Part shown: positions 15,485 through 56,026 of the stretch, one piece after another
How the letters are laid out: the number at the start of each line of letters is the position of its first letter
Position numbering within the stretch: position 1 is the first letter of the stretch
NCBI GenBank assembly: GCA_013368445.1
Contig: JAACJO010000006.1
Span: 124,001-188,000 of the forward strand
Direction: 5' to 3'
From: Leucocoprinus leucothites
Taxonomy: Eukaryota; Basidiomycota; Agaricomycetes; Agaricales; Agaricaceae
DNA length: 64,000 nt
The notes under the pieces: model-generated
What the model saw: only the letters and a program-made list of their open reading frames with translations
Told to the model about the DNA's origin: nothing
Database searches by the model: none
Translations under genes and position numbers: made by a program

Positions 15485-15522
<38 letters not shown>

Positions 15523-20221: not shown

Positions 20222-20257
<36 letters not shown>

Positions 20258-20270
20258 ATGAATTTATATA

Positions 20271-20292
20271 GCGGTGCTCGATCGCAGTCCGC
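20271..20292 (-). promoter_or_regulatory. 3'-terminal bulged stem-loop (LINE-B)
   Basis: In element sense GCGG-AC-TGC-GATCGA-GCA-CCGC. Same helices and AC bulge as the half-LINEs, different loop. Lies about 20 nt before the poly(A). Confidence 0.65.
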
Positions 20293-20433
20293 TTTCAACT
20301 AAATATTACAAACAGACGGTACACTACAGCAAGCTGGGGTACACGAAGCGGTCGGAGACCGCTTAAGACAGAGACTATACACGATTAGTCTAGCAACATA
20401 GATAAGACTCGAAGGAGACTATAGAACGAGGTG

Positions 20434-23400: not shown

Positions 23401-24387
23401 AGTCTCAGAACAGTGGGGGTTCCACCATTCCTTTGACCGGTTAGTAATCCATACAGTTTTAGAGTTCGTATTCCAAGATTCATGAAAGATTCGAGAAATG
23501 GAGTTGGAAATATCGTCCAGGCAGGAAGTGGATCGAATGTCCGAACAGTCAAGGGCCGCCAGATGCTCAGAGACTTGGGAAATAAAAGCCGTCTCCTCAT
23601 CACTATCTTTCGGTAGTACTCGTTTTTTATAATTAATATAATCAGGTCGGATTGGAAGATCCATAATCAAGGGTGCATGATCCGATGGGAGTCTCGAATT
23701 GACATCGATGATGTGGGAGGTGGAATTGTTAGCACAAAAAATAAGATCGATAACCGAATCATCATGACTTTCAATGGAAGAGAAATGAGTAGGAGATAAT
23801 GAGGTAGGTGAGGACCTTGTGAGATTGAGGCTATCCGCTAACTCCGTTAGAGTTATAGCCGACATAGGGACGTAAGTGGCTGAGGGGTCCCATTCTGGAG
23901 ATCGACAATTGAAGTCTCCTCCCATATATATAACATTAGGGATGTTGATGAAGTTCGTTGAAAGAAAATTGATCGCCGATGAAGACGAGTCCGAGTATAT
24001 GTTAAGTAAATGGATATAGTTACCCTGGTTAAATAAGCCCAAGATTTGTATATCGCGGTGGTTAACCCACTCTTGACGAAGAATGGGCCTCATGCGAAGT
24101 AATCGTCTGTGAACATAAGTCAGAGTACGGGGTCGGGGATCGTTAGGCTTGGTAGGGCGGACCATACACAGCCATTCCGGGTGAATAGGGGCACCAATGA
24201 CATCATCCCCTTCAGGGTTGGTAGTAGAAGGTGCTTTCCGAATGTGGTTCCATAGGGGTTCCTGTAGAAAGATGATTTCGAAATCCAACTTTTTGGACTC
24301 GAGTATGGTATCAACCAGGGCATAAGAGCGTCCCACGTTTTGCGAATAGATACGAACAGAAGAGATGGGTTTGTTCTTACCAGACAT
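20434..24387 (-). pseudogene. LINE-B ORF2 polyprotein with two stop codons
   Basis: 1317 codons with no frameshift. Endonuclease 1-240: QNV (16-18), QEP (E43), GGDFN (156-160), VIDLIF (D214), SDH (235-237), so all APE-type catalytic positions are present. RT: FDIAQFF (587-593), GQGSALSP (646-653), FVDD (683-686; Val where most LINEs have Ala). Basic PAKKAKVKG at about 917-925 could act in nuclear import. RNase H: D1001, E1041, D1065. C-terminal CRCGHRLETRHHILCYC. TGA at 23245-23247 replaces Cys of VKQCKL and TGA at 21997-21999 replaces the Arg after GNST. A trans-acting source enzyme for the half-LINEs is expected to resemble this. Confidence 0.93.
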
Positions 24388-24392
24388 ATTTA
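24385..24392 (-). promoter_or_regulatory. ORF1 stop / ORF2 start TAAATATG
   Basis: Antisense copy of the coupled stop/start seen at 10124-10131; stop codon and ATG two bases apart. Confidence 0.7.
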
Positions 24393-27135
24393 AACAGCAA
24401 CTCCACCACCAGAGCGATTGGAGTTAGCGTGAACAGCACGTGCGGTGCGTGATTCGGCGGCTTTATTGGAATGCCAGGTTCGATCGAATCTGTTTCTCCA
24501 GAATGGACATTTGGTGTCGTTAGCGTGATGATCGCCTTTGCAGTTCAGGCATTTGAAATTCTCCAGGTGAGGACATGGAATGCCCTCAGGAGTGGCGTCA
24601 CGGGGGGGGGTTTGATTTGGGATTGGCCTTGCAGCACCAGGCCATGGATCGATGGTTTTCAATGCGATGAGGACCACCACAGATTTGACAACGTGCGCCA
24701 AGGGCGCGACACGCATGAGTGGGATGTCCCCAACGCCAGCAATTCCTGCATTGCGCAATGCCGGGGTGCATACTAGTAGCCCGGATGGTTCCGACATGTC
24801 GGCCGAAGTTGATAGTACGGTTAACCAACGTCTTGGCCTTAGTACCGTTTTGGGAATCCCAAATATCAAACCACACAACGGCCGTGTCTGACTTTGGGGA
24901 AGCTTTCATAACGCGAGGGCGGGCGGCAAGAATAACATTTTCGAACAGAGTAGATTGTCCGAGGGCTTGTTCAACAAATGCAGGGGACAGAGGGTTGGAG
25001 GAATTGGCTACCCAATAAGGGATGCCGATGATTTTCAGGAATGATTTAGATTGTGGGAGACGAGGCTCAACGGGGATGGCGTCTCCTAGTTGCCAGGCTT
25101 TTTTGAGCCAGGATTTGATGGTTTCCAGGTCAGCAGTGGAAGCGACACCTGAGGTGGCAATTGATATGCCGTTATATGATTCGCGAACTGATTCAACGCG
25201 AAGTTTGGATTGAGCGGCGGTGAGACCACGGTTACAGAATTTGGCTGCCTTGTTAAAGTCTTTAATGCGGTCAGCGATGATGTTCCCTTCAAATGGGATG
25301 AGGACTTGACGACGGGTAGGTCCGTGCATGGTCATTTTAGGTTTAGCGCGTGGGGCGCTTGTGGTGGAATGTTCGGGCGCTTGAGGTTGGGTGCCTCCAA
25401 AACCTGCCTTGTACATGGCAAGGACTTTGTTGTATGATAGATCAGGGAAAGCGAGTATCATTTCTCGCATCTTAACCCCGTCAATGTTGGGAGAAGAGCT
25501 GGAAGAGGGAGTCGCCGGCTGGACACCCCGTCGGGCGGCATCAGCGAACGATACGTTCTTCTTATTAAAGTGTTCCGTAAGGGGTTTGGTGGATGCCTTA
25601 CGATCAGGAGGGGGAATAGGAGGCGGCATATCAGAGGCGCCCTTAGGTTTAGGTTTTGATGACTGAGCCTGGCCATCAAAAGAGGGGCGCCCAACTGAGC
25701 ACTCAAAGTTTCCATTCCCGTTCCTTGGGGTCACGTGATTGGAAGGAGGAGGGGGGGCCCGGGAGACACGAATAGGACCGGAAGGCTTGGAAGACGTAAC
25801 GTCATTCTTTGCCTTCAGGGAGCCTGACACGGACGAAACGTCACGTGCCTTACCAGAAGACGTAATATCATTCTGGAGGGGAGAAATGGTGCCCTCAGCG
25901 AGAGGGGCTTGGTCGATGTTCATGTGATCATTGTCGATGCGCGCTATAGAGTTAGCTTGTCCGACGACAATACCAGGTGGGAATAGAGGGGTAGGAATGG
26001 TAGAAGGATGAGGGTTGCGTACCTTTTTTCCCTTCCCTTTACCTTTGGGAGGGGGAGAGGAGTCTGTCATGGGAATATCGGGAGGCGGGCCGTAGTAGTG
26101 CCTTAACGCATCTACAATGGTAAGACCGCTTTCTCCATTGATGGGAAGACGGTCCCAGCCTGTTTCAAACATAGTAGTAAGAAGACAATATATTGGTTCC
26201 CCCATCTGGGGAACTCTTGGGTCTTTTCTGCCGGGTTGTAGCCCTAACGCAGCGCGATGCTTGAAGAAATTAGTAGCGTATTTAAGCGCCTCCAGCGCTT
26301 TAAAAGTAGCTTCACCAACAACAACGGTCTCTTCGGTGGCAGTGTTCAATGGATCCTTAAGATCCGGTAATTGTGGCTGTGCAGGCCTAGACTCCTGCGG
26401 CTGTGCAGTGATGTCACCAGTGACATCATGTGTGACGTCATTAGTATTGGATGAACCGGCAAGGAAGGTAGCCGGGGTGCCGGTTGGCACAGCATTTGCT
26501 GACTCAGCGGATCCGTGGATCGCATGAGGCAACCTTGAGGTGGGTGGGGGTCCAAAGAACCGATTGGTAGGTTCCCCATTCGTGAATACCCCATCCTCTT
26601 GGTCACTCCATGCGTCCCCGCGAGAGTTCAGGTTCAAAGGATCAGGTGTTTTGAGCTCACCAATGAAACCCTCACTGAATGGACGGAAGGGAATGGGTGA
26701 CTTGAAGCCATCATATGCGCTCATCGACGCGGTTTTCGAGATGGCTTTGGGTGTAGAATCCAATCTTTTACGGACTTCACGAGCACGGGCCCGTTTGGAA
26801 TGCGACGATGGAGGGGGAGGAGTTCTGAGGGAGGAGTGTGAGGCCGCACGGGAAAGTGCGGCATGTGCATTTATGGGGGAGGAAGGGGTGGACGAGTCAG
26901 ACGAGTCATAGTCGCTCTCACCGCTTTCTTCTTCATCCGAACCAGCTCTGGATGGAGCAGCCGACTTGGCATCATCGCTAACTGAATGTTTAAACGATTT
27001 GATAGAGAGCGCGGGCGAGTGAGAGCGGTCGCGCTTGGAAGTTGAGACACGTGTTTCAGTGTCGGCAATGTTCATGGGGTCCGAAGACGGCGGAGGGGTA
27101 CCTTTAAGGTCTACCCAATGCGATGGTGCAGTCAT
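24390..27135 (-). pseudogene. LINE-B ORF1 with a homopolymer frameshift
   Basis: ATG at 27135 (MTAPSHWVDLK). Open to about 24610, covering the N-terminal Ser/acidic region, RFFGPP motif, LEALKYATNFFKH block, KMREMILAFPDL motif, conserved domain and first two Cys/His motifs. The G-run at 24602-24610 (9 bases, one net base more than other copies) shifts the frame; the last part (CLNCKGDHHANDTKCPFW to GGGVAV) continues in the other frame to the stop at 24390-24392. One extra base is the only inactivating change. Confidence 0.9.
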
Positions 27136-27219
27136 GATGGTATAATTCGTAGTCAGTCTGTATGTAGACACCGTCAAAGAAATCGATGATGGTGGTAAGA
27201 GGGAGTGTCTCACATATTG

Positions 27220-30395: not shown

Positions 30396-30416
30396 CATCC
30401 CTCCTTGTCCTCTTAC

Positions 30417-30437
30417 CACCACCATCGAAAGTTGGTG
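30417..30437 (+). promoter_or_regulatory. 5' leader hairpin of half-LINE
   Basis: CACCA-(CCATCGAAAGT)-TGGTG just downstream of CCTCCTTGTCCTCTTAC. The pairing is kept in hL-H (loop CCATCTCTTAGT, 50073-50101 region, antisense), in shorter form in hL-C (ACCA...TGGT near 2849), and as CACC/GGTG in LINE-B (7315-7340). It could act in the RNA (packaging, translation) or mark an internal promoter; function is not known. Confidence 0.45.
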
Positions 30438-30477
30438 TTTGTTCTGAGGCATTCTTACATCGTCTATCTACGTTACT

Positions 30478-32382
30478 ATGGGTAGGCGCAAGTCTAAAGC
30501 TACTGCAAACCAGTTTGCCGCGTTTGAATCCGAGTCCACTGTCTCTGACGATGAGCTCAACATCGCCGAGATGGCCGAAGATGACCACCTCGACCCCTAC
30601 GACAACCCACTCAACGTGCATGGGTTCTTCAGTCCCCCCCAGGCTGACATCTCGTCGCCTGGCCCCTCCCAACCGACCGCTGACGTTCTGTCGCCGTCGG
30701 TTGCTCCTCCAGTGGCAGACGTTCTGTCGCCACTCAAACCCTTCACAGCTGGTGGAACCACCTTCTACCCTGTCGACGCTCCCCCTGCCATGCCCGAGTC
30801 GGTGACCTCCTCCAAGGGAAAGAAGAAGAAGGAGCTCACCCCAAAGCGTGCCCTCAAAGACCTCATATCCTTCCTCAAGTGGTTGGATACCATCAAAGAC
30901 CCTGCCGACATCGCGGAACAAGACGCACAGTCCATGGTTACCTGTCTAGCCAAGGCCTCGTACGCTGTAGCCAGCGAGCTGAACATGAGCAGCACGCTGA
31001 TCACCTCCAACTCTCTCAATGCCTCTGGCTGGGAGACGTATAGAGATTTCCTGGGGGGCTTCGGTTATAGGTTCTCAGCCGAGGCCTCCCCTAAAGCAAC
31101 GCGCGTCGTCCATGAGGCGACCCATGGATCCACTGACTCAGCAGGTCCATGTGACATCGACATGGGTTCCCCCAAGGCGCCCACCCTACCCCCCCCGGAT
31201 AGTTGGCCCGCCCCGGCCCGTCCCTCCCTACGGCCCAAGCTGGCGCCTGCAAAGGCCCGCACTAGTGGCAAAGCGCCCACCCAAGCGCCCCCCACTCCTA
31301 AGGTTAGGTTTGATGGCCAAGCCCGGCGAGCGCCCATCCCTCCCTCGGCGGCTAAGAAGTCGTTTGCTGAGGTAGCCCGTACCCCGGCGTCTGCGGCAGC
31401 GCTTATCAAGCTAGCCCAGTCCCATCCCACTCTTGAGCCTGATCGCGTCGCCACGATGCATCAGGCCGCCCTCGCCAATGCGCCTTCTACAAAGAAGCCC
31501 CGCATGACCACGTCGGGCCCCACCCGACGCCAACTCTTCCTCGATTTCACTGGCAGTTCCAGTGACATCACCTACCTCCATCACAAGGCCATGCGCCTTC
31601 TCAACAATTCCCTCACTCGCGCGAAGAGCTCACTCCGTGTCGAGAACATTGCTCGGGCGTACGACACCATCTCGTTGTACACCAACTCCGTCGCCACTGA
31701 TGCTGATGCATTAGTGATCGAATCTTTCCTCTCTTCAGCCTTCACTGCCCCGTTTGAGCTGAAGACCAAACGCCCCAGGTCCAGGTCTTATCTCAAGATC
31801 CTGGACGTACCTTACTACACGAGTGGCATACGCACCACTCCGCAACACGTCACCGACCGTATGCGTCTGTCTCCCTTCAAGGAGACATTCGCTAATGTAT
31901 CCTCCGTGCGCATCATGCGCAACTCTGCCAAAGCTGACACCGCCACCATTTGGGTCGACCTTTGGGATTCTCAGTCCGGCGCTAACGCTAAGCGCCTGGT
32001 TGGCAAATACCTCAACTTCGACGGCGTGCAGTCCATGATCAAGGTCGCGCGCGCTCACCCCGGGACCCCCCAGTGTCAACGATGCTGGTGTTGGGGCCAC
32101 ACTACCACCACCTGTCGCAACCGCGCGCTCAGGTGCTCACAATGCAGTGGGCCACATCGGTCTGAGAATCACCGCACCACCTCCTCCTGCTGTAAGGGAT
32201 CGCCAAAGGCCAACCCCCCCATCCAGCCCACACCCGCCGGGGAACCCTGTCCCCATATCAAGTGTGTCAATTGTGGCAAGGAACATGCTGCTACTGACTG
32301 TAAGTGCGCGTTCTGGCACCACCGGTTTGATCAGGATTGGCTGCAAAGTCATTCTGGTTCTGCTGGTCGGCCCCGGGCCTAG
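30478..32382 (+). CDS. hL-A ORF1, intact gag-like zinc-knuckle protein
   Basis: 634 aa, open from ATG to TAG. Order: basic start MGRRKSKATANQ, acidic DELNIAEMAEDD, FFSPPQAD and Pro/Ser repeats (1-90), KGKKKKELTPKRAL, helical 'alpha' middle module (about 125-195), Pro/Ala-rich linker (225-275), AKKSFAEVARTP, conserved domain from RRQLFLDF to LWDSQSGANAKR (about 340-520, probably an RRM-like gag fold), Cys/His motifs at about 533, 553 and 596. In the first motif one Arg is Cys (CQRCWCWGH). No RT, endonuclease or protease. Likely binds its own RNA and relies on LINE-B ORF2 in trans. Uninterrupted frame suggests a young or recently selected copy. Confidence 0.93.
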   Translation: MGRRKSKATANQFAAFESESTVSDDELNIAEMAEDDHLDPYDNPLNVHGFFSPPQADISSPGPSQPTADVLSPSVAPPVADVLSPLKPFTAGGTTFYPVDAPPAMPESVTSSKGKKKKELTPKRALKDLISFLKWLDTIKDPADIAEQDAQSMVTCLAKASYAVASELNMSSTLITSNSLNASGWETYRDFLGGFGYRFSAEASPKATRVVHEATHGSTDSAGPCDIDMGSPKAPTLPPPDSWPAPARPSLRPKLAPAKARTSGKAPTQAPPTPKVRFDGQARRAPIPPSAAKKSFAEVARTPASAAALIKLAQSHPTLEPDRVATMHQAALANAPSTKKPRMTTSGPTRRQLFLDFTGSSSDITYLHHKAMRLLNNSLTRAKSSLRVENIARAYDTISLYTNSVATDADALVIESFLSSAFTAPFELKTKRPRSRSYLKILDVPYYTSGIRTTPQHVTDRMRLSPFKETFANVSSVRIMRNSAKADTATIWVDLWDSQSGANAKRLVGKYLNFDGVQSMIKVARAHPGTPQCQRCWCWGHTTTTCRNRALRCSQCSGPHRSENHRTTSSCCKGSPKANPPIQPTPAGEPCPHIKCVNCGKEHAATDCKCAFWHHRFDQDWLQSHSGSAGRPRA

Positions 32383-32635
32383 GGGGAGCTCCCTAGTGTC
32401 AACGCATCGTCCCCCACCCATCGCCGGTCGCCGGGTGGGCTCCTACCAACCACAAGGCCTGCCTTCAGATGCAGTGATATCAGTATATGTTTCTTTCCTT
32501 TGTATTTCGTTACATGCCTAGCCCCCTTCTGCTGTTGACTCGTGTATTGTCTTGGACAGGACTTGTATATATTCCCGGTTGTTTACTTGTGTGTAGTCGG
32601 TAGCGGTATCGGTTCCATGTAGTAGATAGTTGGGC

Positions 32636-32657
32636 GCGGACTGCTATCGCGCACCGC
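32636..32657 (+). promoter_or_regulatory. 3'-terminal bulged stem-loop (hL-A)
   Basis: GCGG-AC-TGC-TATCGC-GCA-CCGC, followed by GTTATAAATTCATTGATTT and the poly(A). This copy lacks the optional second hairpin. Confidence 0.65.
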
Positions 32658-32670
32658 GTTATAAATTCAT

Positions 32671-32702
<32 letters not shown>

Positions 32703-32705
<3 letters not shown>

Positions 32706-33144
32706 CTGAGCGAGTGCAAGGTGAGGGGGGCGCTGTCAAGTTCAAGGTTGTTGACGATGATAATGGCCACCTTAGCAAGGCATGTGACGGCCACAGAAGC
32801 ATCTTCCTCTGTGATAGAGGAGTAGGAGTTGGAGCATTCCTCTAACCACTTGAGGAATGTCTGGAGGTTGGTGAGAGTGCGCTTTGGGGTGAGCTCCTTC
32901 TTCTTTCCCTTGGAGGAGGTCACTGACTCAGGCACAGCAGGGGGAGCATCGACAGGGTAGAAGGTCATTCCACCAGCTGTGAAGGGTTTGAGTGGCAATG
33001 AAATGTCAGCCACGGGAGGAGCAACCAACAGTGATGGAACATCAGTGGTCGGTTGGGAGGGGCCAGGCAATGGAGCATCAGCCTGGGGGGAGCTGAAGAA
33101 CCCACACATGTTGAGTGGGTTGTCATAGGGGTCGAGGTGGTCAT
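32703..33144 (-). pseudogene. hL-A (copy 2) ORF1, beta-module and linker part
   Basis: Antisense continuation of copy 2: DHLDPYDNPLNMCGFF, Pro/Ser repeats, KPFTAGGMTFYPVDAP, KGKKKELTPKRTL, LQTFLKWLEECSNSYSSITEEDASVAVTCLAKVAIIIVNN. At 33144 it is cut by another hL-A, whose far side is at 45226 (duplication GTCGAGGTGGTCAT at 33131-33144 and 45226-45239). Confidence 0.85.
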
Positions 33145-33168
33145 TTTTTTTTTTTTTTTGTTTGTCAG

Positions 33169-33187
33169 TGGACCCCAAAGGGGTCCA
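33169..33187 (-). promoter_or_regulatory. Variant second 3' hairpin with compensatory stem
   Basis: Element-sense TGGACCCC-TTT-GGGGTCCA: 8 bp with a 3-nt loop. Relative to GCGACCCC/GGGGTCGC of hL-D the outer pairs have changed together. A similar form, TGGACCCC-TTC-AGGGTCCA, lies at about 61842-61861. Confidence 0.6.
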
Positions 33188-33484
33188 AATTTATAATGTT
33201 GTGTGCGATAGCAGTCTGCGCCCAACTATCTACTACAGGGAACTGATACTGCTACTGACTACATAAGAGTAAACAACTGGGAATATATAATAGTCCTGTC
33301 CGAGACAATATACAAATCGACAACAGAAGGGAGGCTAGGCATGTAACAAAATGCAAAGAAATGAGACATATACTGATATCACTGCATCAGATGGCAGGCC
33401 TTCATCCCTCCTTGTCCTCTTACCACCACCATCGAAAGTTGGTGTTTGTTCTGAGGCATTTCTACATCGTCTATCTACAGTAAT

Positions 33485-34568
33485 ATGGGTAGGCGCAAGT
33501 CTAAAGCTACTGCCAACCAGTTTGCCGCGTTCGAATCTGAGTCCGCTGTCTCTGACGACGAGCTCAACATTGCTGAGATGGCCGACGACGACCACATCGA
33601 CCCCTACGACAACCCTCTCAACGTGCGAGGGTTCTTCGGCTCCCCCAAGGCTGACGTCCCGTCACCTGGCCCCTCCCAACCGACCGCTGATGTCCCGTCG
33701 CCATCGGTTGCTCCTCCAGTGGCAGACGTTCTGTCGCCACTCAAACCCTTCACAGCCGGTGGAACCACCTTCTACCCTGTCGACGCTCCCCCTGCCATGC
33801 CCAAATCAGTGACCTCCTCCAAGGGAAAGAAGAAGGAGCTCACCCCAAAGCGCGCTCTCTCAAGCCTCCGGACATTCCTCAAGTGGTTAGAGGACTGTGC
33901 TGAATCCCACTCCTCCATCGCAGAGGAGGATGCTTCTGCGGCCGTCACCTGCCTCGCCAAGGCGGCCTTTGTCATCGTCGACGAGCTGGAACTCGACGGC
34001 GCCCCTCTCTCCTCGCACTTGCTCAGCTCTTGCGGGCTGATCGATTTCGGGGATGTAATGTACGACCTCGGGCGCAAGTGTGGGCTGCCCGAGACCGGCC
34101 CTAAAGCAACGCGCGTCGTCCATGAGGCGACCCATGGATCTGCTGACTCAGCGGGTCCACGTGACATCAACATGGGTTCCCCCAAGGCGCCCACCCTGCC
34201 CCCTCCGGATCGTCGGCCTACCCCGGCCTGTCCCCCCCTACCGCCCAAGCCGGCACCTGCAAAGGCCCACGCTAGTGGCAAAGTGCCCACTCAAGTGCCC
34301 CCCGCTCCTAAGGGTAGGTCTGATGGCCAAGCCCGGCAAGCGCCCATCCCTCCCTCGGCGGCTAAGAAGTCATTCGCTGAGGTAGCTCATACCCCGGTGT
34401 CTGCGGCAGCGCTTATCAAGCTAGCCCAGTCCCACCCTACCCTAGAGCCCGATCGCGTCGCTGTGATGCATCAGGCCGCCCTCGCTGATGCGCCTTCTGC
34501 GAAGAAGCCCCGCATGACCACGTTGGGCCCCACCTGACGCCAACTCTTCCTCGATTTCACTGGCAACT

Positions 34569-34570
<2 letters not shown>
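33485..34570 (+). pseudogene. hL-A (copy 5) ORF1, N-terminal part
   Basis: MGRRKSKATANQ, DDELNIAEMADDD, FFGSPKAD, Pro/Ser repeats, KGKKKELTPKRAL, beta middle module (LRTFLKWLEDCAESHSS... GLIDFGDVMYDLGRKCGLPE), Pro/Ala linker, AKKSFAEVAHTP. TGA at 34535-34537 sits where copy 3 has CGA (PTRRQLF). Continues after the hL-D insertion at 36884. Confidence 0.88.
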
Positions 34571-34605
<35 letters not shown>

Positions 34606-36869
34606 AGTGCGACCCCAGAGGGGTCGCCAATTTATAACGCGGTGCGCGATAGCAGTCCGCGCCCAACTACTACAACATGCAGAAAGTACTGCTACCAACT
34701 ACACATCTACATAGCTAGGTATAAATACGAGTCCGAAGTCTGCTTAGTACAAACGAAATCTTCACGCAGTGGTACATAGTTCGAAATGAAAGCATACTAC
34801 AATACAAGTCGGGTTGTTCTGATTTACCGGCGGATGGAAGATGCACGGCATGGACCTCGATGACCCACCACGCACAGCGCGGGGGTGGACAATGCGACCT
34901 GCAGGGAAGAGAACCCTACAGACGCGACCGAGCGGCATCACGGCGATGGTTTTCAAGCCAAAGCCGGTCAAACCGGTGTCGCCAGAATGGGCACTTGCGA
35001 TCGTCAGCTGCATGGGACTTGGCGCAGTTGACGCACTTGATGTGAGGACAGGGATCCTCGGCGGCGGTGGGCAGGATAGGGGGATTGGCCTTCCGACTCC
35101 CCTTACAACAGCTCGAGTGGGAGCGGTGGTTCTCAGTACAATGAGGACCGCCGCAGGCGGCGCATTGTAACGCACGGGCGCGGCACGATGAGGTAGAGTG
35201 ACCCCAGCGCCAGCAACGCTGACACTGAGGACTGCCTGGATGAGCGCGCGCAGCCCGGATTACGGACTGAACACCCTCGAAGTGGAGGTACTTGCCCAGG
35301 AGCTTCTTGGCGCTCGCTCCTGATTGAGAGTCCCAGAGGTCGAACCAGACGGTGGCGGTGTCGGCTCTGGTGGAGTTGCGCATGATGCGCACGGAGGAAA
35401 CATCTGCGAAAATGTCCTTGAAGGCAGACAGTCGCATGCGATCGGTCACGTGATTCGGTGTGATGCGGACACCGTTCACGAAGTAAGGGACGTCGAGGAT
35501 CTTAAGGTAGGACCTCGACCTGGGGCGGTGCGTCTTGATCGCAAAGGGGGCGGTGAAGACGGAGGGGATGGAGGACTCGATGACGTCACAGTCAGCGTCA
35601 GAGGGAACGGAGGAGGTGTGCAGCACGATTGTGCTGTACGCCTTGGTGATGTTCTCAACATGCAAGATCGACTTGGCGCGGGAGAGGGAGTCGTTGAGAA
35701 GGCGCATGGCCTTGTGATGGAGATAAGTGACCTCATCGGCACTGCCGACGAAGTCAAGGAAAAGTTGGTGGCGGGTGGGGCCCGCGGTTGTCATGCGCGG
35801 CTTCCAAGTGGCGGGAGCGGCGGCTTGGGCGGCCTGATGCATAGCGGTGATGCGATCAGGGTCGAGATCGGGGTGGGATTGCGCCAACTTGATGAGTGAC
35901 GCAACCCCGGCGGGGCGGGCCGCCTCGGCGAAGGATTTCTTGACCGAGGCGGGAGGAGGGGGCGCTTTGGCGGGCGCTCGCTGAGCTTGGCCATCAGACC
36001 TAACCCTAGCTTGGGGAGGGCCACTAGCGCGCGCTTTAGCAGGTGCTTGCTTGGGCGGTAGAGTGGGACGGGCCGGGGCGGGCCGATGAACCGGGGGCGT
36101 TTGTTTGGGCGCTTCAGGGTCACCCATACTAATGTCACGTGGACCCGCTTTGTCAGCAGATCCGCGGGACGACTCATGGTCACCGTGTGGTTGATTAGGG
36201 CCGGTCGAAATGGCCCCAGAGTGAAGGAAGGAGTCGACAGTGTGCCACCCCTGCTTCTGAAACATCGGAGTGAGCTGGGTGTCGTCCCAGCCCCTCTTCC
36301 TGAATTCCCACATGCTCCCACAGACGTAGAGAGCAAACGAGCGTCGGGCCGTGTCAGTCATGACAGCAGCGGGATCAAGATTTGAGAACCATCGCCCAAA
36401 TCGACGAAGACCTTCGTAGGCGGCAGTGGCCTCCTCCTCCAAGTCAGGTCCGACAGAAGAGGGGGCAGAGGGGCCAGCCCGGGGTGCGATAGAGCCGCTG
36501 GGGGCGGCGGTGGAAGGACCTGCGGGGCTCAAAGCCACCGGAGGTTGAGAAGTAGGCGCGAGGGACGGAACGTCACCAGGCACCGGGCGAGGAGGCGACT
36601 CAAGGTCAGCCTCTGGGATGGAGGACCGAGGTCCAGAGAAGCCGCGGATGTTGCGCGGGTCGTCGTATGGGTCGAGATGTTCGTCCTCGGACATCTCGGC
36701 GATGTTGAGCTCGTCGTTGGAAGCGTTGACGGACTCAGTGGAGCGAGGCGGTGGCCGGTTGGCTTTAGACTTTCGTTTACCCATGTAAAACAGGTAGAAT
36801 ACGATGTAAAACTAGACGTCTAATCAAACACCAACTTTCGATGGTGGTGGTAAGAGGTCAAGGGCTGTG
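34571..36869 (-). mobile_element. Complete hL-D half-LINE, intact ORF1
   Basis: T-run 34571-34598, second hairpin GCGACCCC-TCT-GGGGTCGC, bulged stem-loop, 3'UTR, ORF1 36784-34916, leader with the AAAGTTGGTGTTTG segment to about 36865. 14-bp duplication TCACTGGCAACTCC on both sides. Confidence 0.94.
34916..36784 (-). CDS. hL-D ORF1, intact gag-like zinc-knuckle protein
   Basis: 622 aa, uninterrupted. Starts MGKRKSKANRPPPRSTESVNASNDELNIAEMSEDEHLDPYDDP, then FSGPRSS in place of FFGPPQAD, a Pro-rich stretch, an hL-D-specific helical module (EEEATAAYEGLRRFGRWFSNLDPAA... GSMWEFRKRGWDDTQL), Pro/Ala linker, VKKSFAEAARPAG, conserved domain RHQLFLDF to WFDLWDSQSGASAKK, then CQRCWRWGH, CAACGGPH, CVNCAKSH. 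The C-terminal half is closest to hL-C, the middle module is unique. No enzyme domain. Role inferred as RNA-binding gag. Confidence 0.93.
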   Translation of the reverse strand: MGKRKSKANRPPPRSTESVNASNDELNIAEMSEDEHLDPYDDPRNIRGFSGPRSSIPEADLESPPRPVPGDVPSLAPTSQPPVALSPAGPSTAAPSGSIAPRAGPSAPSSVGPDLEEEATAAYEGLRRFGRWFSNLDPAAVMTDTARRSFALYVCGSMWEFRKRGWDDTQLTPMFQKQGWHTVDSFLHSGAISTGPNQPHGDHESSRGSADKAGPRDISMGDPEAPKQTPPVHRPAPARPTLPPKQAPAKARASGPPQARVRSDGQAQRAPAKAPPPPASVKKSFAEAARPAGVASLIKLAQSHPDLDPDRITAMHQAAQAAAPATWKPRMTTAGPTRHQLFLDFVGSADEVTYLHHKAMRLLNDSLSRAKSILHVENITKAYSTIVLHTSSVPSDADCDVIESSIPSVFTAPFAIKTHRPRSRSYLKILDVPYFVNGVRITPNHVTDRMRLSAFKDIFADVSSVRIMRNSTRADTATVWFDLWDSQSGASAKKLLGKYLHFEGVQSVIRAARAHPGSPQCQRCWRWGHSTSSCRARALQCAACGGPHCTENHRSHSSCCKGSRKANPPILPTAAEDPCPHIKCVNCAKSHAADDRKCPFWRHRFDRLWLENHRRDAARSRL

Positions 36870-36883
36870 TCACTGGCAACTCC

Positions 36884-37705
36884 AGTGACATCACTTATCT
36901 CCACCACAAGGCCATGTGCCTTCTTAATGACTCCCTCACTCGCGTGAAGAGCTCACTTCGCGTCGAGAACATTGCTCGGGCGTACGACACCATATCGTTG
37001 TACACCAATTCCGTCGCCACTGATGCCGATGCATTGGTGATCGAATCCTCCCTCTCTTCAGCCTTCACTGCCCCGTTCGAGCTGAAGACCAAGCGCCCCA
37101 GGTCCAGGTCTTATCTCAAGATCCTGGACATCCCTTTCTACACGAGTGGCATACGCACCACTCCGCAACACGTCACCGACTGTATGCGTCTGTCTCCCTT
37201 CAAGGAGACATTCGCTAACGTATCCTCCGTGCGCATCATGCGCAACTCCGCCAAAGCCAACACCGCCACCATTTGGGTCGACCTTTGGGATTCTCAGTCC
37301 GGCGCTAATGCTAAGCGCCTGGTTGGCAAATACCTCAACTTCGACGGCGTGCAGTCCATGATCAAGGCCGCGCGCACTCACCCCGGGACCCGCCAGTGTC
37401 AACGATGCTGGCGATGGGGCCACACTACCACCACCTGTCGCAACCGTGCGCTCAGGTGCTCACAATGCGGTGGGCCACATCGGTCTGAGAATCACCGCAC
37501 CACCTCCTCCTGCTGTAAGGGGTCGCCGAAGGCCAACCCCCCCATTCAGCCCACACCCGCTGGGGATCCCTGTCCCCATATCAAGTGCGTCAATTGCGGC
37601 AAGGAACATGCTGCTACTGACCGCAAGTGCGCGTTCTGGCACCACCGGTTTGATCGGGATTGGCTGCAAAGTCATTCTGGTTCTGCTGGCCGGCCCCAGG
37701 CCTAG
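36884..37705 (+). pseudogene. hL-A (copy 5) ORF1, C-terminal part
   Basis: Resumes at SDITYLHHKAMCLLNDSL and runs open to TAG at 37703-37705, covering the conserved domain and the three Cys/His motifs, ending GRPQA. Apart from the upstream TGA and the hL-D insertion this ORF1 would be intact. The 3'UTR follows to 37961. Confidence 0.88.
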
Positions 37706-37971
37706 GGGGAGCTCCCTAGTGTCAACGCATCATCCCCCATCCATCACCGGTTGCCGGATGGGCTCTCACCAACCACAAGGCCTGCTGTCAGATGCAGTGA
37801 TATCGGTATATGTCTCACTTCTTTGTATTTTGTTACATGCCTAGCCCCCTTCTGCTGTCGATTCGTGTATTGTCTCGGACAGGACTTTTATATATTCCCG
37901 GTTGTTTACTCTTGTGTAGTTGGTAGCGGTATCGGTTCCCTGTAGTAGATAGTCGGGTGCACAATGATATG

Positions 37972-40246
37972 CATCCCTCCTTGACCTCTTACCACCACCA
38001 TCGAAAGTTGGTGTTTGATTAGACGTCTAGTTACACATCGTATTCTACCTGTTTTACATGGGTAAACGAAAGTCTAAAGCCAACCGGCCACCGCCTTGCT
38101 CCACCGAGTCCGTCAATGCTTCTGACAACGAGCTCAACATCACCGAGATGTCCGAGGACGAACATCTCAACCTATACGACGACCCGCGCAACGTCCCCGG
38201 CTTCTCTGGACCTCGGTCCTCCATCTCAGAGGCTGACCTTGAGTTGCCTCCTCGCCCAGCGCCTGGTGACGTTTCATCCCTCGTGCCTACTACTCAACCT
38301 CCGGTGGCTTTGAGCCCCGCAGGTCCTCCCCCTGCTGCTGCTGCCCTCAGCGGCTCTATCGCACCCCGGGCTGGCCCCTCTGCTCCCTCTTCCGTTGGAC
38401 CTGACTTGGAGGAGGAGGCCACCGCCGCCTATGAAGGTCTTCGTCGATTCGGGAGATGGTTCTCGAATCTTGATCCCGCTGCTGTCATGACCGACACGGC
38501 CCGACGCTCATTTGCTCTCTACGTCTGTGGGAGCATGTGGGAATTCAGGAAGCGGGGCTGGGCCGATACCCAGCTCACTCCGATGTTTCAGAAGCAGGGG
38601 TGGCCTACGGTCGACTCCTTCCTTTGCTCTGGGGCCCTTTCAACCGGCCCTAATCAACCACACAGCAACCATGAGTCGTTCCGCGGATCTGCTGACAAAG
38701 CAGGTCCATGTGACATTAGTATGGGTGACCCTGAAGTGCCCAAACAACCGCCCCCAGATCATCGGTCCACCCCGGCCCGTCCCACCTTACCGCCCAAGCA
38801 AGCGCCTGCTAAAGCGCGCGCTAGTGGCCCCCCCCAAGCTAGAGTTAGGTCTGATGGCCAAGCTCAGCGAGCGCCCGCCAAAGCGCCCCCTTCTCCCACC
38901 TCGGTCAAGAAGTCCTTCGCCGAGGCGGCCCGCCCCGCCGGGGTTGCGTCACTCATTAAGCTTGCGCAATCCCACCCTGATCTCGACCCTGATCGCATCA
39001 CTGCTATGCATCAGGCCACCCAAGCTGCCGCTCCCGCCACTCGGAAGCCGCGCATAACAACTGCGGGCCCTACCCACCGCCAACTTTTCCTTGACTTCGT
39101 CGGCAATACCAATGAAGTCACCTATCTCCATCACAAGGCCATGCGCCTTCTTAATGACTCCCTCTCCCGCGCCAAGTCGATCTTGCGTGTGGAGAACATC
39201 ACCAAGGCGTACAGCACGATTGTGCTGCACACCTCCTCCGTTCCCTCTGACACCGACTGTGACGTCATTGAGTCCTCCATCCCCTCCATCTTCACCGCCC
39301 CCTTTGCGATCAAGACGCGCCGCCGCAGGTCGAGGTCCTACCTCAAGGTCCTCGACGTCCCTTACTTTGTGAACGGTGTCCGCATCACACCGAATCACGT
39401 GACCGACCGCATGCGACTGTCCGCCTTCAAGGACATTTTCGCAGATGTTTCCTCCGTGCGCATCATGCGTAACTCCACCAGAGCCGACACCGCCACCGTC
39501 TGGTTCGACCTCTGGGACTCTCAATCAGGAGCGAGCACCAAGAAGCTCCTGGGCAAGTACCTCCACTTCGAGGGTGTTCAGTCCGTGATCCAGGCTGCGC
39601 GCGCTCATCCCGGCAGTCCTCAGTGTCAGCGTTGCTGGCACTGGGGTCACTCTACCTCATCGTGCCGCGCTCGTGCGCTACGGTGCGCCGCCTGCGGCAG
39701 TCCTCATCGTACTGAGAACCACCGCTCCCACTCGAGCTGTTGTAAGGGGAGTCCAAAGGCCAATCCCCCTATCCTGCCCACCGCCGCCGAGGATCCCTGT
39801 CCTCACATCAAGTGCATCAACTGCGCCAAGTCGCATGCAGCTGACGATCGCAAGTGCCTATTCTGGCAACACCAGTTTGACCGGCTTTGGCTTGAAAACC
39901 ATCACTGTGATGCCGCTCAGTCGCGTCTGTAGGGTTCTCTTCCCTGCAGGTCGCATTGTCCGCCCCCACGCTGTGCGTGGTGGGTCATCGAGGTCCATGC
40001 CGTGCATTTTCCATCCGCCGGTAAATCAGAACAACCCGACTTGTATTGTAGTATGCTTTCATTTCGAACTATGTACCACTGCGTGAAGATATCATTTGTA
40101 CTAGGCGGACTTCGGACTCGTATATGTATTCCTAGCTATGTAGATATGTAGTTGGTAGCGGTACTTTCTGCATGTTGTAGTAGTCGGGTGCAGACTGCTA
40201 TTGCGCACCGCGTTATAAATTGGCGACCCCTCCAGGGTCACACTTG

Positions 40247-40277
<31 letters not shown>
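37972..40277 (+). mobile_element. Complete hL-D half-LINE, downstream half of heterodimer
   Basis: Leader CATCCCTCCTTGACCTC from about 37972, ORF1 38058-39932, 3'UTR, stem-loop, second hairpin (GCGACCC/GGGTCAC, one pair lost), poly(A) 40247-40277. Its own 5' side has no duplication; the duplication after its tail pairs with that in front of the hL-A at 33403. Confidence 0.92.
38058..39932 (+). CDS. hL-D ORF1, intact gag-like zinc-knuckle protein
   Basis: 624 aa, uninterrupted. Same architecture as 34916-36784: basic MGKRKSKANRPPP start, acidic segment, FSGPRSS, Pro/Ala-rich region, LEEEATAAYEGLRRFGRWFSNL module, linker, VKKSFAEAARPAG, conserved domain, CQRCWHWGH, CAACGSPH, CINCAKSH motifs, C-terminus DRLWLENHH. 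Two intact hL-D ORF1s in one window point to recent activity of this family. Confidence 0.93.
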   Translation: MGKRKSKANRPPPCSTESVNASDNELNITEMSEDEHLNLYDDPRNVPGFSGPRSSISEADLELPPRPAPGDVSSLVPTTQPPVALSPAGPPPAAAALSGSIAPRAGPSAPSSVGPDLEEEATAAYEGLRRFGRWFSNLDPAAVMTDTARRSFALYVCGSMWEFRKRGWADTQLTPMFQKQGWPTVDSFLCSGALSTGPNQPHSNHESFRGSADKAGPCDISMGDPEVPKQPPPDHRSTPARPTLPPKQAPAKARASGPPQARVRSDGQAQRAPAKAPPSPTSVKKSFAEAARPAGVASLIKLAQSHPDLDPDRITAMHQATQAAAPATRKPRITTAGPTHRQLFLDFVGNTNEVTYLHHKAMRLLNDSLSRAKSILRVENITKAYSTIVLHTSSVPSDTDCDVIESSIPSIFTAPFAIKTRRRRSRSYLKVLDVPYFVNGVRITPNHVTDRMRLSAFKDIFADVSSVRIMRNSTRADTATVWFDLWDSQSGASTKKLLGKYLHFEGVQSVIQAARAHPGSPQCQRCWHWGHSTSSCRARALRCAACGSPHRTENHRSHSSCCKGSPKANPPILPTAAEDPCPHIKCINCAKSHAADDRKCLFWQHQFDRLWLENHHCDAAQSRL

Positions 40278-41913: not shown

Positions 41914-44223
41914 TTTTTTTTTTTTTTTTTTTTTTAAGTCAACACGACCCCGGAGGGGTCACAAATTTATAATGTGGTGCATGATAGCAGTCCGTGCCCA
42001 ACTACTACAACATGCAGAAAGTACCGCTACCAACTACACATCTACATAGCTAGGTATAAATACGAGTCCGAAGTCCGCCTAGTACAAACGACATCTTCAC
42101 ACAGTGGTACATAGTTCGAAATGAAAGCATACTACAATACAAATTGGGCTGTTCTGTTTTGCTGGCGGATGGACGTGCACGGCATGGATCTCCAGGGCCC
42201 ACCACATACAGCACAGGGGCGGACAATACGACCTATAGGGAAGAGAACCCTACAGACGCGACCAAGCAGCATCGTGATGATGGTTTTCAAGCCAAAGCCG
42301 GTCAAACCGGTGTCGCCAGAATGGGCACTTGTGATCATCAGCTGCATGCGACTTGGCGCAGTTGACGCACTTGATATGAGGACAGGGATCCTCGGCGGGG
42401 GTGGGCGGAATTGGGGGATTGGCCTTCGGACTCCCCTTACAACAGCTCGAGTGGGAGCGGTGGTTCTCAGTACAATGAGGACCGCCGCAGGCGGCACATC
42501 GTAGTGCACGGGCGCGGCACGATGAGGTAGAATGCCCCCAGCGCCAGCAATGCTGACACTGAGGACTGCCTGGATGAGCGCGTGCGGCCCGGATGACGGA
42601 CTGCACACCCTCGAAGTGAAGGTACTTGCCCAGGAGCTTCTTGGCGCTCGCTCCTGATTGAGAGTCCCAGAGGTCGAACCAGACGGTGGCGGTGTCGGCT
42701 CTGGTGGAGTTGCGCATAATGCGCATGGAGGAAACATCTGCAAAAATGTCCTTGAAGGTGGACAGTCACATGTGGTCAGTCACGTGATTCGGTGTGATGC
42801 GGACACCGTTCACGAAGTAAGGGACGTCGAGGACCTTGAGGTAGGACCTCAACCTGCGGCGGCGCGTCTTGATTGCAAAGGGAGCAGTGAAGACGGAGGG
42901 GATGGAGGACTCAATGACGTCACAGTTGGCGTCAGAGGGAACGGAGGAGGTGTGCAGCGCGATCATGCTGTACGCCTTGGTGATGTTCTCCACATGCAAG
43001 ATCGACTTGGCGCGGGAGAGGGAGTCGTTGAGAAGGCGCATGGCCTTGTGATGGAGATAGGTGACTTCATCGGCACTGCTGACGAAGTCGAGGAAAAGTT
43101 GGCGGCGGGTAGGGCCCACGGTTGTCATGCGCGGCTTCCGAGTGGCGGGAGCGGCGGCTTGGGCGGCCTGATGCATAGTGGTGATGCGATCAGGGTCGAG
43201 ATCGGGGTGGGATTGCACCAACTTAATGAGTGACGCAACTCCGGCGGGGCAGGCCGCCTCGGCGAAGGACTTCTTGACCGAGGTGGGAGGAGGGGGCGCT
43301 TTGGTGGGCACTCGCTGAGCTTGGCCATCAGACCTAACCCTAGCTTGGGGGGGGCCACTAGCACGCGCTTTAGCAGGCACCTGCTTGGGCGGTAAGGTGG
43401 GACAGGCCGGGGCAGGCCGACGATCCGAGGGGGTCTGCTTGGGTGCTTTGGGGGAGCCCATGTTAATGTCACGTGGTTCTGCTTTGTCAGCGGATCCATG
43501 GATCGCCTCATGGGCGACGCGCGTATGTTTAGGGTAGGCCCCCTCCACTCTGGTGGCACAGTCCCGAATGAAATCCGCAAATGTGTCCCATCCCTGGGCT
43601 TGCATCCGCTCGTTGGTGAGGGCCATGTCGCCTTGGCCTCGGTTAAGAACTTCCGCAACCAGTCCAACAAGAGTCGGGATGATCACGGCGGTGGTGGCCT
43701 CTGGAAGAGGGCCTGAGGGAATGTTCCCGACGAAGCGGGTGAAGAAACGAATCCCAGCAAGAGCCCGGGTCTCAACAGACTCCTCAGTTGACCCGGAGGA
43801 GACAGTGGACGGCGGTGCTGGGGGGGGGAGGTTCTTCACGGGGTAGAACGTCTGTCCGCCGGCAGTGAAGGGTTTTGGGGACGACGACGGAACGTCAGCT
43901 GTGGGAGCCACCACTGACCGCGACGGAATGTCAGCGGCAGGCAGGGAAGAGGGTCCAGGCGACAAAACGTCAGCCTGGGGAGGTCCGAAGAACCCGCGAA
44001 CGTTGCAGGGGTCGTCGTAGGGGTCGAGATGTTCATCCTCGGACATCTCGGCAATGTTGAGCTCGTTGGCGGAGGCCTCGGTGGACTCGGTAGATTGGCG
44101 GAGGGTGCCTTTAGACTTAGACTTTCGCTTGCCCATGTAGAATAGGCAGAGATATGATGTAAACTAGACGTCTTAAAACACACCAACAAATAGATGGTGG
44201 TGGTAAGAGGTCAAGGAGAGATG
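41914..44223 (-). mobile_element. Complete hL-C half-LINE (second locus)
   Basis: T-run to about 41935, second hairpin GTGACCCC-TCC-GGGGTCGT (maintained by two G-U type pairs), stem-loop, ORF1 44136-42250, leader ending GAGAGATG at 44223. Duplication of about 15 bp flanks it. Confidence 0.92.
42250..44136 (-). pseudogene. hL-C ORF1, one in-frame stop
   Basis: About 628 codons: MGKRKSKSKGTLRQ, acidic segment, FFGPPQAD, Pro/Ser repeats, hL-C middle module (LAGIRFFTRFVGNIPSGPLPEA... MQAQGWDTFADFIRDCA), linker, VKKSFAEAACPAG, conserved domain, CQHCWRWGH, CAACGGPH, CVNCAKSH. The only lesion is TGA at 42766-42768 where other copies have a CGN arginine after DRM. Likely gag-like RNA-binding protein. 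Confidence 0.9.
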
Positions 44224-50127: not shown

Positions 50128-51216
50128 TGTAGATAGTTCTCTCTCTCATCTTTCTGATTCCTTTTCTCCATTCGCTTCCAAATCCAAGCCTGGGTCTCGT
50201 CTCATGGACATATTTTCTGATTCTATTCACTTTCATCCTTGTAATCGCTCAGACAAACACAAGATGTATAAACATGTATTGACTCTTGATTCTGTTTTCT
50301 CATCCTCTTCTTCTGATCGTAATTGTATTTTGGTTGTCACTGATGCTTCTGTTCCACTGGTAGGTTCCCTTCAGGCGGTTTCGGCGGCACATATATATCG
50401 TGGCAGACAACAAGTGTCCCATGCAAAACAGGCAAGCAGTCAGGCGTCGTCGACTGATGCCGAGCTCTATTCTATTCGCATTGGCATCACCAAGGCCATC
50501 TCCCTCCAGTGCGATCACATCATTCTCATCACCGACTGTCTTCCAGCAGCCAAGCTGGCAGTCAATCCCTCTATCCATTCGAGCCAATCACACTCCATCC
50601 AAGTCTGCCAACTTTTATCCGATTGGATCACGGCCAAACCTTCTTGCTCCATCGACTTCTGGGACGTCCCTTCCAAGTGGCACTGGAAGCCCCACCTCAA
50701 AGTCCACAATGATGTTACCACCACATGCATACACGCCCCTCCTCATTCAGGTGCTACTCTTAACTTCTTGAGATGCAAAGCCACCAATGACTGTCAGAAA
50801 TCCTGGGAGTCCACATTCTGGAAGAAGAAGTACTGCGGTAGCAGTTTCCTTCTCTCAAAAAAGAACTGCAAGTTTCTTATCCCCACTTATGTCAAAGGAG
50901 GTCCCTGGATTCCCCTAGCCAATGAGTCACCATCACTATGCGCACACATGACCCGTGCCATCCTCAATCATGCTCCTATTGGAGCTTATCATGAGAGGTT
51001 CTTCCCCCTCAAGCACAAGTCCTGTCATTGTGGCCATCACCTGGAAACACGACATCATATCCTGTGTTACTGCCCCCTCTATCCTATTCACACTCAATGG
51101 GTACTATGCACCTTTCCTCAGTATGAGTTCCTCATCAAGTTCTTGAAAAAGAACCCGGCTGCCTTTGCCTTCACCAATCATGACACGCGTCCACTGCTGC
51201 CTCAAGCTCCTGTGCC
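50128..51216 (+). pseudogene. LINE-B ORF2 fragment, RNase H to C-terminus
   Basis: In-frame SSLSHLSDSFSPFAS..., RNase H with VTDASVPLVGS, SSTDAELYS, ITDCLPAAKLAV, then FWDVPSKWHWKPH, FLLSKKNCKFLIPTYVKGG and the Cys/His region (CHCGHHLETRHHILCYC), to PQAPVP. Interrupted at 51216 by a LINE-B in the other direction; duplication CTCAAGCTCCTGTGCC at 51201-51216 and 52958-52973. Remainder of ORF2 is at 52974-53052. Confidence 0.87.
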
Positions 51217-53250: not shown

Positions 53251-53273
53251 CATTGACTACGAATTCTACCAAT

Positions 53274-56024: not shown

Positions 56025-56026
56025 AT

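What the first reader, a model, noticed from the sequence alone, without database searches (positions are those of the whole stretch)
30396..40277. ORF1-only 'half-LINE' families in a fungus, four of them, with intact gag-like ORFs
hL-A, hL-C, hL-D and hL-E run leader - one zinc-knuckle ORF1 - about 300 nt 3'UTR - poly(A), with no RT or endonuclease anywhere (e.g. 30396-32702, 34571-36869, 37972-40277, 41914-44223). They have their own target duplications, so they are complete mobile units rather than truncations of LINE-B; LINE truncation removes the 5' end, not ORF2. This parallels mammalian HAL1, but here several distinct families coexist with an autonomous partner. Three ORF1s are uninterrupted over more than 620 codons.
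Basis: partly seen in the sequence, partly recalled or inferred. Interest (0 to 1): 0.88.

Follow-up and report, generated by a model that had tools for sequence, protein, structure and literature searches.

The report
ORF1-only LINEs filling mushroom centromere candidates
In a gilled mushroom, mobile elements that carry only the RNA-binding (gag) gene and no copying enzyme seem to borrow the machinery of a neighbouring complete element, and together the two fill one block on each chromosome piece where they occur, probably the centromere.

Summary
The half-LINEs are real, complete, non-autonomous non-LTR retrotransposons: about 2.3 kb, one 622-635-codon gag-like ORF1 (RRM-like core plus CCHC knuckle), about 300-nt 3'UTR, poly(A), no EN/RT. 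Of 47 starts tested, 33 have 12-17-nt target duplications (mispaired control 3 of 298). None of 143 ORF1 places has EN within 1390 nt downstream; 35 of 54 LINE-B ORF1 hits have it within 1 kb. ORF1 omega is 0.36; neutral simulations average 0.59-0.84. hL ORF1 is only 36-38% identical to LINE-B ORF1, so these are not LINE-B deletions, yet 5' end, 3' stem-loop and target duplications resemble LINE-B's: mobilisation in trans by LINE-B is likely. New beyond the finding: all 623 listed hit rows of nine own-genome searches fall in one block on each of 24 contigs. The genome matches Leucocoprinus leucothites, and the layout resembles the putative centromeres of Agaricus bisporus. HeT-A/TART of fly telomeres is as close a parallel as HAL1. 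Corrections: hL-C and hL-D are one family; hL-D has no target duplication; hL-E has one stop. Centromere identity and trans-mobilisation are inferred.

The parts
30396..32702 (+). hL-A, complete ORF1-only element; ORF1 from Met at 30478 to 32382; poly(A) 32677-32702; TSD 14/15
32635..32658 (+). 3' stem-loop of hL-A (8 bp), shared in form and largely in sequence with LINE-B
34571..36869 (-). hL-C, complete ORF1-only element; ORF1 34916-36784; TSD GGAGTTGCCAGTGA 14/14; inserted inside an hL-A-type copy
33403..34565 (+). left part of the hL-A-type copy split by hL-C (matches hL-A 1-1160)
36870..37957 (+). right part of that split copy (matches hL-A 1152-2239)
37972..40277 (+). hL-D, same family as hL-C (89.6% protein identity); ORF1 38058-39932; poly(A); no TSD
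41914..44223 (-). hL-E, complete unit, ORF1 with one in-frame stop; TSD 17/17; inserted inside an inverted hL-A-type copy
2825..5146 (+). E-family copy, one stop, TSD 12/12
15486..17807 (-). inverted near-identical duplicate of 2825-5146
47814..50128 (-). mosaic hL: first third E-family, rest A-family; TSD 14/14; one stop
7301..14283 (+). LINE-B copy 1: ORF1 (within ORF 6791-10126), EN 10218-11429, RT+RNase H 11430-14081
20222..27204 (-). LINE-B copy 2 (88% identical), RT and RNase H
53250..60181 (+). LINE-B copy 3 (82% identical), lacks about the first 45 nt

Best explanation
The half-LINEs are a group of related non-autonomous non-LTR retrotransposon families (at least three, with sub-lineages and mosaics) that encode only ORF1p, an RNA-binding gag-like protein. 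Inferred cycle: the hL RNA begins with a short 5' leader; ORF1p coats its own RNA through its RRM-like core and zinc knuckles; the LINE-B ORF2 protein (EN+RT) recognises the 3' stem-loop and poly(A) that hL shares with LINE-B, nicks a target and copies the hL RNA by target-primed reverse transcription, leaving a 12-17-nt duplication like those of LINE-B. hL keeps its own ORF1 because that protein works mainly on the RNA that encodes it (cis preference), which would explain purifying selection on ORF1 without ORF2. Insertions go into one block per chromosome piece, probably the centromere, so the elements nest in each other. SHOWN: anatomy, precise ends, TSDs, absence of EN/RT in the elements read, purifying selection, ends resembling LINE-B's, nesting, one block per contig among listed hits. 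INFERRED: trans-mobilisation by LINE-B, cis preference, centromere identity.
For: Complete units: 33 of 47 starts with TSD against 3 of 298 mispaired controls; TSDs differ between most copies. The 78 listed starts begin at the same point, though they were selected for a match reaching the first 8 nt. No ORF2: 0 of 143 hL ORF1 places with EN closer than 1393 nt downstream and 0 of 51 RT hits with hL ORF1 at the LINE spacing of ~1.52 kb, while 19 of 51 RT hits have LINE-B ORF1 there and 35 of 54 LINE-B ORF1 hits have EN within 1 kb, 34 of them at 305-312 nt; no EN/RT in the four window elements. Selection: omega 0.356, codon-position bias also at non-CpG sites, core domain 0.16-0.24, neutral simulation means 0.59-0.84; 19 of 51 ORF1s open over the full 622-635 codons. 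Resemblance to LINE-B: 5' ends CATCCCTCCTTGNCCTCTTACCACCACCATC (hL) and CATCCTCCTTTCCCTCTWACCACCATCATC (LINE-B); 3' stem-loop kept with some compensatory changes over 13 hand-chosen tails; the ten LINE-B copies whose ends I read have poly(A) and, by eye, TSDs of about 13-17 nt. Location: 623 listed rows, 24 contigs, one block each.
Against: No transcript, protein or retrotransposition data. Most hL tails carry an extra hairpin (GACCCC..GGGGTC) after the shared stem-loop that LINE-B lacks: 25 of 40 hairpin-tail hits have hL ORF1 ~230 nt upstream and 0 of 40 have RT, so a helper other than LINE-B is possible. 14 of 47 starts have no TSD (two of them second starts sharing a tail with another copy). 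One hL (L023) lacks poly(A). Only the best-scoring candidates were scored (70 of 1273, 69 of 1295, 51 of 765, 103 of 411), so a rare hL ORF1+ORF2 element could be missed, and copies outside the blocks could be among those not scored. The stem-loop count had no shuffled control, and four of its eight pairs have some broken cells. The highest within-group omega, 0.51, overlaps the low tail of the neutral simulation (lowest run 0.39). No CENP-A data.
Confidence: 0.84

Rival explanations
1. The ORF1-only copies are deletion or truncation products of LINE-B or of another ORF1+ORF2 LINE in the genome.
For: Internal-deletion LINE-B derivatives do exist in the window: 5403-7290 joins the C-terminal part of ORF1 to RNase H.
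Against: hL ORF1 is 36-38% identical to LINE-B ORF1 over its C-terminal part only and about 40% to LINE-C ORF1 over 146 aa of one copy. About 240 nt of the hL-A 3'UTR has no blastn match to LINE-B. Copies share exact ends and have distinct TSDs.
Confidence: 0.05
2. The half-LINEs are mobilised by a LINE other than LINE-B: LINE-C or an unseen LINE carrying the hairpin tail.
For: Most hL tails carry a hairpin absent from LINE-B. LINE-C lies in the same blocks, and its 3' end was not found at the three places tried.
Against: hL-A itself ends like LINE-B without the hairpin. 5' end, stem-loop and TSD length resemble LINE-B. Four LINE-B copies on C28 have EN and RT matches without stops and a listed open frame of 1329 aa. 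0 of 40 hairpin-tail hits follow an RT hit.
Confidence: 0.15
3. The blocks are not centromeres but other heterochromatin that accumulates nested elements.
For: No CENP-A data exist here; nested elements can accumulate wherever recombination is low. On C6, C8 and C13 the block lies within about 0.2 Mb of a contig end, and only right-end telomere arrays were found (180 forward, 0 reverse), so the distance to the other chromosome end is unknown. 86 of 110 contigs, among them large ones such as C11 and C12, have no listed hit.
Against: One block of about 40-260 kb on each of C1-C10 and C13, more than 1 Mb from the listed telomere arrays on C2, C4 and C6. In Agaricus bisporus, same family, there is one 110-280-kb methylated cluster per chromosome, with four HaTad non-LTR families found only and always there (PMC7473861, section 8 and passages). 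Contigs without a block may be chromosome arms (inference).
Confidence: 0.14
4. The half-LINEs are dead relics whose ORFs look conserved only because they were copied recently from a few masters.
For: 31 of 51 ORF1 stretches carry stops as extracted (some upstream of the frame), and 22 of the 37 stops in the aligned set are TGA in columns whose commonest codon is CGA or CGC, as CpG decay would give.
Against: Omega medians are below the neutral means both within and between families, up to dS about 1. 24 of 33 TSDs are perfect although copies differ by dS about 0.2, so most divergence probably predates insertion and arose in active lineages; TSDs with many mismatches would escape detection, which weakens this.
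Confidence: 0.08

Closest known systems
HAL1 (half-L1) of mammals
   Same: Non-autonomous LINE encoding only ORF1p (PMC5753468, passages read); poly(A) and TSDs (recalled for HAL1).
   Different: HAL1 derives from L1, several times independently. Here hL ORF1 is a lineage of its own, 36-38% from the co-resident LINE-B ORF1, of RRM plus CCHC layout, with its own extra 3' hairpin, found in one chromosomal block per contig, in a fungus.
HeT-A with partner TART, Drosophila telomeres
   Same: Gag-encoding non-LTR element without RT living beside a Gag+Pol partner; gag under negative selection; telomere-specific (PMC5537684, passages read).
   Different: HeT-A joins chromosome ends in head-to-tail arrays. 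Half-LINEs insert internally in both orientations with 12-17-nt TSDs, in a probable centromere. Gag-directed targeting is reported for HeT-A and untested here.
Centromere-restricted HaTad non-LTR elements of Agaricus bisporus
   Same: Same fungal family; LINEs present only and always in one large repeat cluster per chromosome (PMC7473861, section 8).
   Different: That section describes no ORF1-only elements; two 'Unknown Repeats' found in all clusters, with only a few small fragments outside, are unexplained and are candidates.
Grem-LINE1 of Mucor and the centromere LINE of sunflower
   Same: LINEs at or beside centromeres (PMC7377519, passages; PMC4628103, title and start of abstract in a search listing).
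   Different: In what I saw they are described as LINEs, not as ORF1-only partners; distant hosts.

Membership tests
Half-LINE of the HAL1 kind | Encodes ORF1p only, no EN or RT | tested here: met
Half-LINE of the HAL1 kind | Propagates as a unit: poly(A), TSDs, many copies | tested here: met
   33 of 47 with TSD, control 3 of 298
Half-LINE of the HAL1 kind | Derived from its partner LINE (same ORF1) | tested here: not met
   ORF1 36-38% identical to LINE-B, C-terminal part only; it works like HAL1 but is not a LINE-B derivative
Half-LINE of the HAL1 kind | Trans-mobilised by the partner's ORF2p | not testable with these tools
   resemblance of 5' end, 3' stem-loop and TSDs only
HeT-A-like (domain-specific gag-only LINE) | Gag only, partner with Pol present | tested here: met
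HeT-A-like (domain-specific gag-only LINE) | Restricted to one chromosome domain | tested here: met
   623 listed rows, one block on each of 24 contigs; best-scoring hits only
HeT-A-like (domain-specific gag-only LINE) | Terminal addition at telomeres in head-to-tail arrays | tested here: not met
   internal insertions, both strands, TSDs; blocks away from the listed TTAGGG arrays on C2, C4, C6
HeT-A-like (domain-specific gag-only LINE) | Gag targets the element to its domain | not testable with these tools
   needs a localisation experiment
LINE ORF1 protein of RRM + CCHC type | RRM fold followed by CCHC knuckle(s) | tested here: met
Centromeric retroelement | Co-location with CENP-A | not testable with these tools
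   position argument only

The most novel reading that the evidence does not exclude
A centromeric counterpart of the HeT-A/TART pair: the hL Gag binds centromeric chromatin and carries both hL RNA and the LINE-B machinery there. The ORF1-only element would then be the targeting and structural partner rather than a mere parasite, and the two together would build and refresh the centromeres of this mushroom.
Probability: 0.2. Interest if true: 0.88.

Novelty: new variant of a known kind. Interest (0 to 1): 0.66.

Why it matters
ORF1-only LINEs that keep an intact, selected ORF1 are known to me only in mammals (HAL1) and flies (HeT-A). A group of three or more families in a fungus, living beside an autonomous LINE with open ORF2 copies and found in one block per chromosome piece, gives a natural test of cis preference (why keep ORF1 and lose ORF2?) and of how retroelements are aimed at centromeres. 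LINE-B and hL have similar ends but diverged ORF1s, so which part of the protein or RNA decides target choice can be asked directly.

Tried and rejected
Pfam named no domain in hL ORF1 above its cut-offs (weak zinc-ribbon matches). No relative by sequence in PDB. The viral-contig search found none. Two protein-database searches found the same two relatives: a chimeric gene model from this same genome and one ORF1 of unnamed source at 39%; so spread to other fungi is untested. LINE-C as the parent of hL: its ORF1 is no closer to hL than LINE-B's, over 146 aa of one copy. The LINE-C 3' end was sought in three places and not found. C28:258929, the closest hL-EN pair, is an hL inserted in LINE-B ORF1; C10:1424656, an hL 342 nt before an RT, ends in poly(A) directly beside a 5'-truncated RT fragment; C2:1839500 (EN at 1985 nt) and the other hL places with EN or RT between 2.6 and 3.4 kb downstream were not read in full. 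The strongest objection to the omega result (CpG decay) was simulated and rejected. No fold other than RRM is excluded by the structure comparison; HMG-CoA reductase chains reach similar Z and were taken as a common arrangement.

Paper searches for ORF1-only LINEs in fungi, or for centromeric LINE/ORF1-only pairs: searches returned none; others (20 of 24 listed; 20 of 783; 15 of 75; 23 of 23; 20 of 2,978) listed no paper whose title or abstract start describes such elements. The listed papers were not read except those cited, and the library holds open-licence papers only. The main HAL1 paper was not held.

Rows dropped: 8 of 51 ORF1s left out of the codon analysis for odd starts or frames, and 5 more left out of the group comparisons; identical copies counted once. 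The count of stop-free ORF1s (20 of 51) includes L008, which ends early at 601 codons; 19 are full. One search tabulated only 31 of the 150 rows; one search repeats the count with all 150. One search used 13 of the 76 tails, chosen by hand, without a shuffled control. The LINE-B TSDs were read by eye without a control.
Full report
WHAT IS THERE. The four named stretches are ORF1-only elements. Three start with CATCYCTCCTTG and hL-C with the variant CACAGCCCTTG, followed by (A/T)CCTCTTACCACCACCATC; each has one long ORF, about 300 nt of 3'UTR, and poly(A). The ORFs of hL-A, C and D are open (644, 631 and 633 codons stop to stop); hL-E has one stop. tblastn with LINE-B EN and RT finds nothing in the four elements at E <= 1. 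hL-C sits inside an hL-A-type copy and hL-E inside an inverted one, with TSDs of 14/14 and 17/17; hL-D has none. C and D are 89.6% identical in protein, so the four are three families. By best blastn assignment the window is 29,620 bp hL, 28,592 bp LINE-B and 5,788 bp other.

GENOME-WIDE RECURRENCE. The window is C6:124001-188000 of a 47.0-Mb, 110-contig assembly. A public gene model on a contig of 2,355,037 bases, the length of C7 here, is named as Leucocoprinus leucothites and matches C7 at 100%; this is an Agaricaceae mushroom. Searches with hL-D and hL-A ORF1 gave 73 and 71 matches, 143 distinct places (a few are two pieces of one copy). These are lower bounds because only 70 of 1273 and 69 of 1295 candidates were scored. 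Of 47 starts with a downstream poly(A) tested, 33 have a TSD, 24 of them perfect; mispaired flanks gave 3 of 298. The 14 without TSD include hL-D and two second starts that share a tail with another copy.

IS ORF2 EVER ATTACHED? Of 54 LINE-B ORF1 hits, 35 have EN within 1 kb downstream, 34 of them at 305-312 nt, and 19 of 51 RT hits have LINE-B ORF1 about 1.52 kb upstream. None of 143 hL places has EN closer than 1393 nt; five more have EN between 1985 and 3355 nt, and four have RT between 342 and 3383 nt. The 1393-nt case is an hL inserted in LINE-B ORF1; the one hL lying 342 nt before an RT ends in its own poly(A) beside an RT fragment. The others were not all read. EN and RT hits too are only the best-scored ones (103 of 411, 51 of 765), so a rare parent element is not excluded.

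SELECTION. Codon-model omega over 43 ORF1s (8 of 51 dropped) is 0.356, kappa 6.7. NG86 medians are 0.17-0.29 within five groups and 0.24-0.41 between them. Third-position changes are 0.56-0.62 of changes away from CpG within groups. Neutral simulations with CpG transitions raised 1-40 fold gave mean omega 0.59-0.84, lowest single run 0.39; the highest observed within-group pair, 0.51, overlaps that lower tail. The RRM-like core is most constrained in four of five groups (0.16-0.24), the N-terminal part less so (0.25-0.34). Of the 51 ORF1s, which come from the best-scoring hits, 19 are open over the full 622-635 codons. Of 37 stops in the aligned set, 22 are TGA where the commonest codon is CGA or CGC, as CpG decay would give. 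TSDs found are nearly perfect while copies differ by dS about 0.2, so I infer that most divergence arose in several active lineages before insertion.

THE LINK TO LINE-B. 5' ends: hL CATCCCTCCTTG(A/T)CCTCTTACCACCACCATC, LINE-B CATCCTCCTTTCCCTCT(A/T)ACCACCATCATC; the 78 hL starts were chosen by a match reaching the first 8 nt. 3' ends: hL GCGGACTGCTATCGCGCACCGCGTTATAAATT, LINE-B GCGGACTGCGATCGAGCACCGCTATATAAATT, with variants. This piece folds as one 8-bp stem-loop, with both-sided changes at two pairs and some broken cells at four pairs (13 of 76 tails, chosen by hand, no shuffled control). The ten LINE-B copies whose two ends I read all have poly(A) and, by eye, TSDs of about 13-17 nt. A LINE-B and an hL entered what looks like the same site of the hL ORF (GAGGC..GCGGAC). 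Most hL tails add a hairpin GACCCCTCYRGGGTC that LINE-B lacks. Of 40 hairpin-tail hits 25 follow an hL ORF1 hit and 0 an RT hit; of 41 hits with the hL-A tail 21 follow hL ORF1 and 2 RT (one a LINE-B tail, one an hL tail behind a LINE-B nested in it); of 40 LINE-B-tail hits 0 follow hL ORF1 and 10 RT. The hL copies ending at 32676 and 19661 in the window and L031 lack the hairpin and end like LINE-B. I therefore put LINE-B first as helper and keep another helper as a rival.

FAMILIES MIX. L023 and the copy at 47814-50128 have the first third of one family (C/D-type and E-type) and the rest of the A-type, with the switch in roughly the same place. Template switching or recombination between families is the likely cause (inference).

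WHERE THEY LIE. I tabulated all 623 listed rows of nine own-genome searches: hL ORF1, RT (27), LINE-B ORF1 (28), EN (36), three tails and the LINE-C EN piece (57). Many rows mark the same element. They fall on 24 contigs, one block on each, largest gap inside a block 46.7 kb, summed span 3.0 Mb or 6.4% of the assembly (an earlier count with 504 rows is). The other 86 contigs, some of them large, have no listed row. TTAGGG arrays lie at or near the right ends of C2, C4 and C6 and on C3, C11 and C19 in the listed part (100 of 180 places; none in reverse orientation). The blocks on C2, C4 and C6 are more than 1 Mb from these, but the C6, C8 and C13 blocks lie near a contig end. In Agaricus bisporus every chromosome has one 110-280-kb methylated repeat cluster taken as the centromere; four HaTad-type non-LTR families and one Copia are found only there and in all of them, and two Unknown Repeats nearly so (PMC7473861; section 8 and passages read). 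I infer that the blocks here are centromeres.

COMPARISON. HAL1 'encodes only ORF1p' and arose several times from L1 (PMC5753468, passages). HeT-A lacks an RT and depends on one from elsewhere, and its Gag targets telomeres (PMC5537684, passages). Half-LINEs work like both and are members of neither: their ORF1 is not that of the partner LINE, and they do not add to chromosome ends. The listings of seven searches show no paper on ORF1-only LINEs in fungi; long listings were cut and the library is open-licence only.

VERDICT. A real group of ORF1-only LINE families under selection on ORF1, most likely mobilised by LINE-B, and found in probable centromeres: a new variant of a known kind.

Noticed in passing
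window 1-5610 and 15022-20632: Near-100% identical inverted duplication of about 5.6 kb with about 9.4 kb between the arms; an assembly artefact is not excluded.
   Followed up: no
window 5403-7290: LINE-B internal-deletion derivative joining the C-terminal part of ORF1 to RNase H, next to the 5' end of LINE-B copy 1.
   Followed up: no
window 28160-29041: Copia-type reverse transcriptase fragment (Pfam RVT_2, E 1.8e-65), inside the longest stretch of the window without hL or LINE-B (27205-30086).
   Followed up: no
L053 (C10:1359215), L054 (C6:188793, just right of the window): A second LINE family (LINE-C), EN about 43% identical to LINE-B EN in L053, lying in the same blocks; the copies looked at are broken.
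   Followed up: partly
C7:1841218 (L052), public protein D9756_004290: A public gene model joins a LINE-C-type endonuclease piece to an hL-A-type ORF1 piece and carries an endonuclease name; it looks like a chimera of nested elements.
   Followed up: yes
hL TSDs of L003, L029, L049: Three of 33 TSDs are nearly the same target sequence (AAGRGGGCCTTTGA or close), so insertion sites inside repeats are re-used.
   Followed up: no
C28:87881-346104: The block with the most listed rows (82), with four LINE-B copies whose EN and RT matches have no stops.
   Followed up: no
whole genome G000: TTAGGG arrays were found in one orientation only (180 forward, 0 reverse), which is odd for contigs of either strand.
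   Followed up: no
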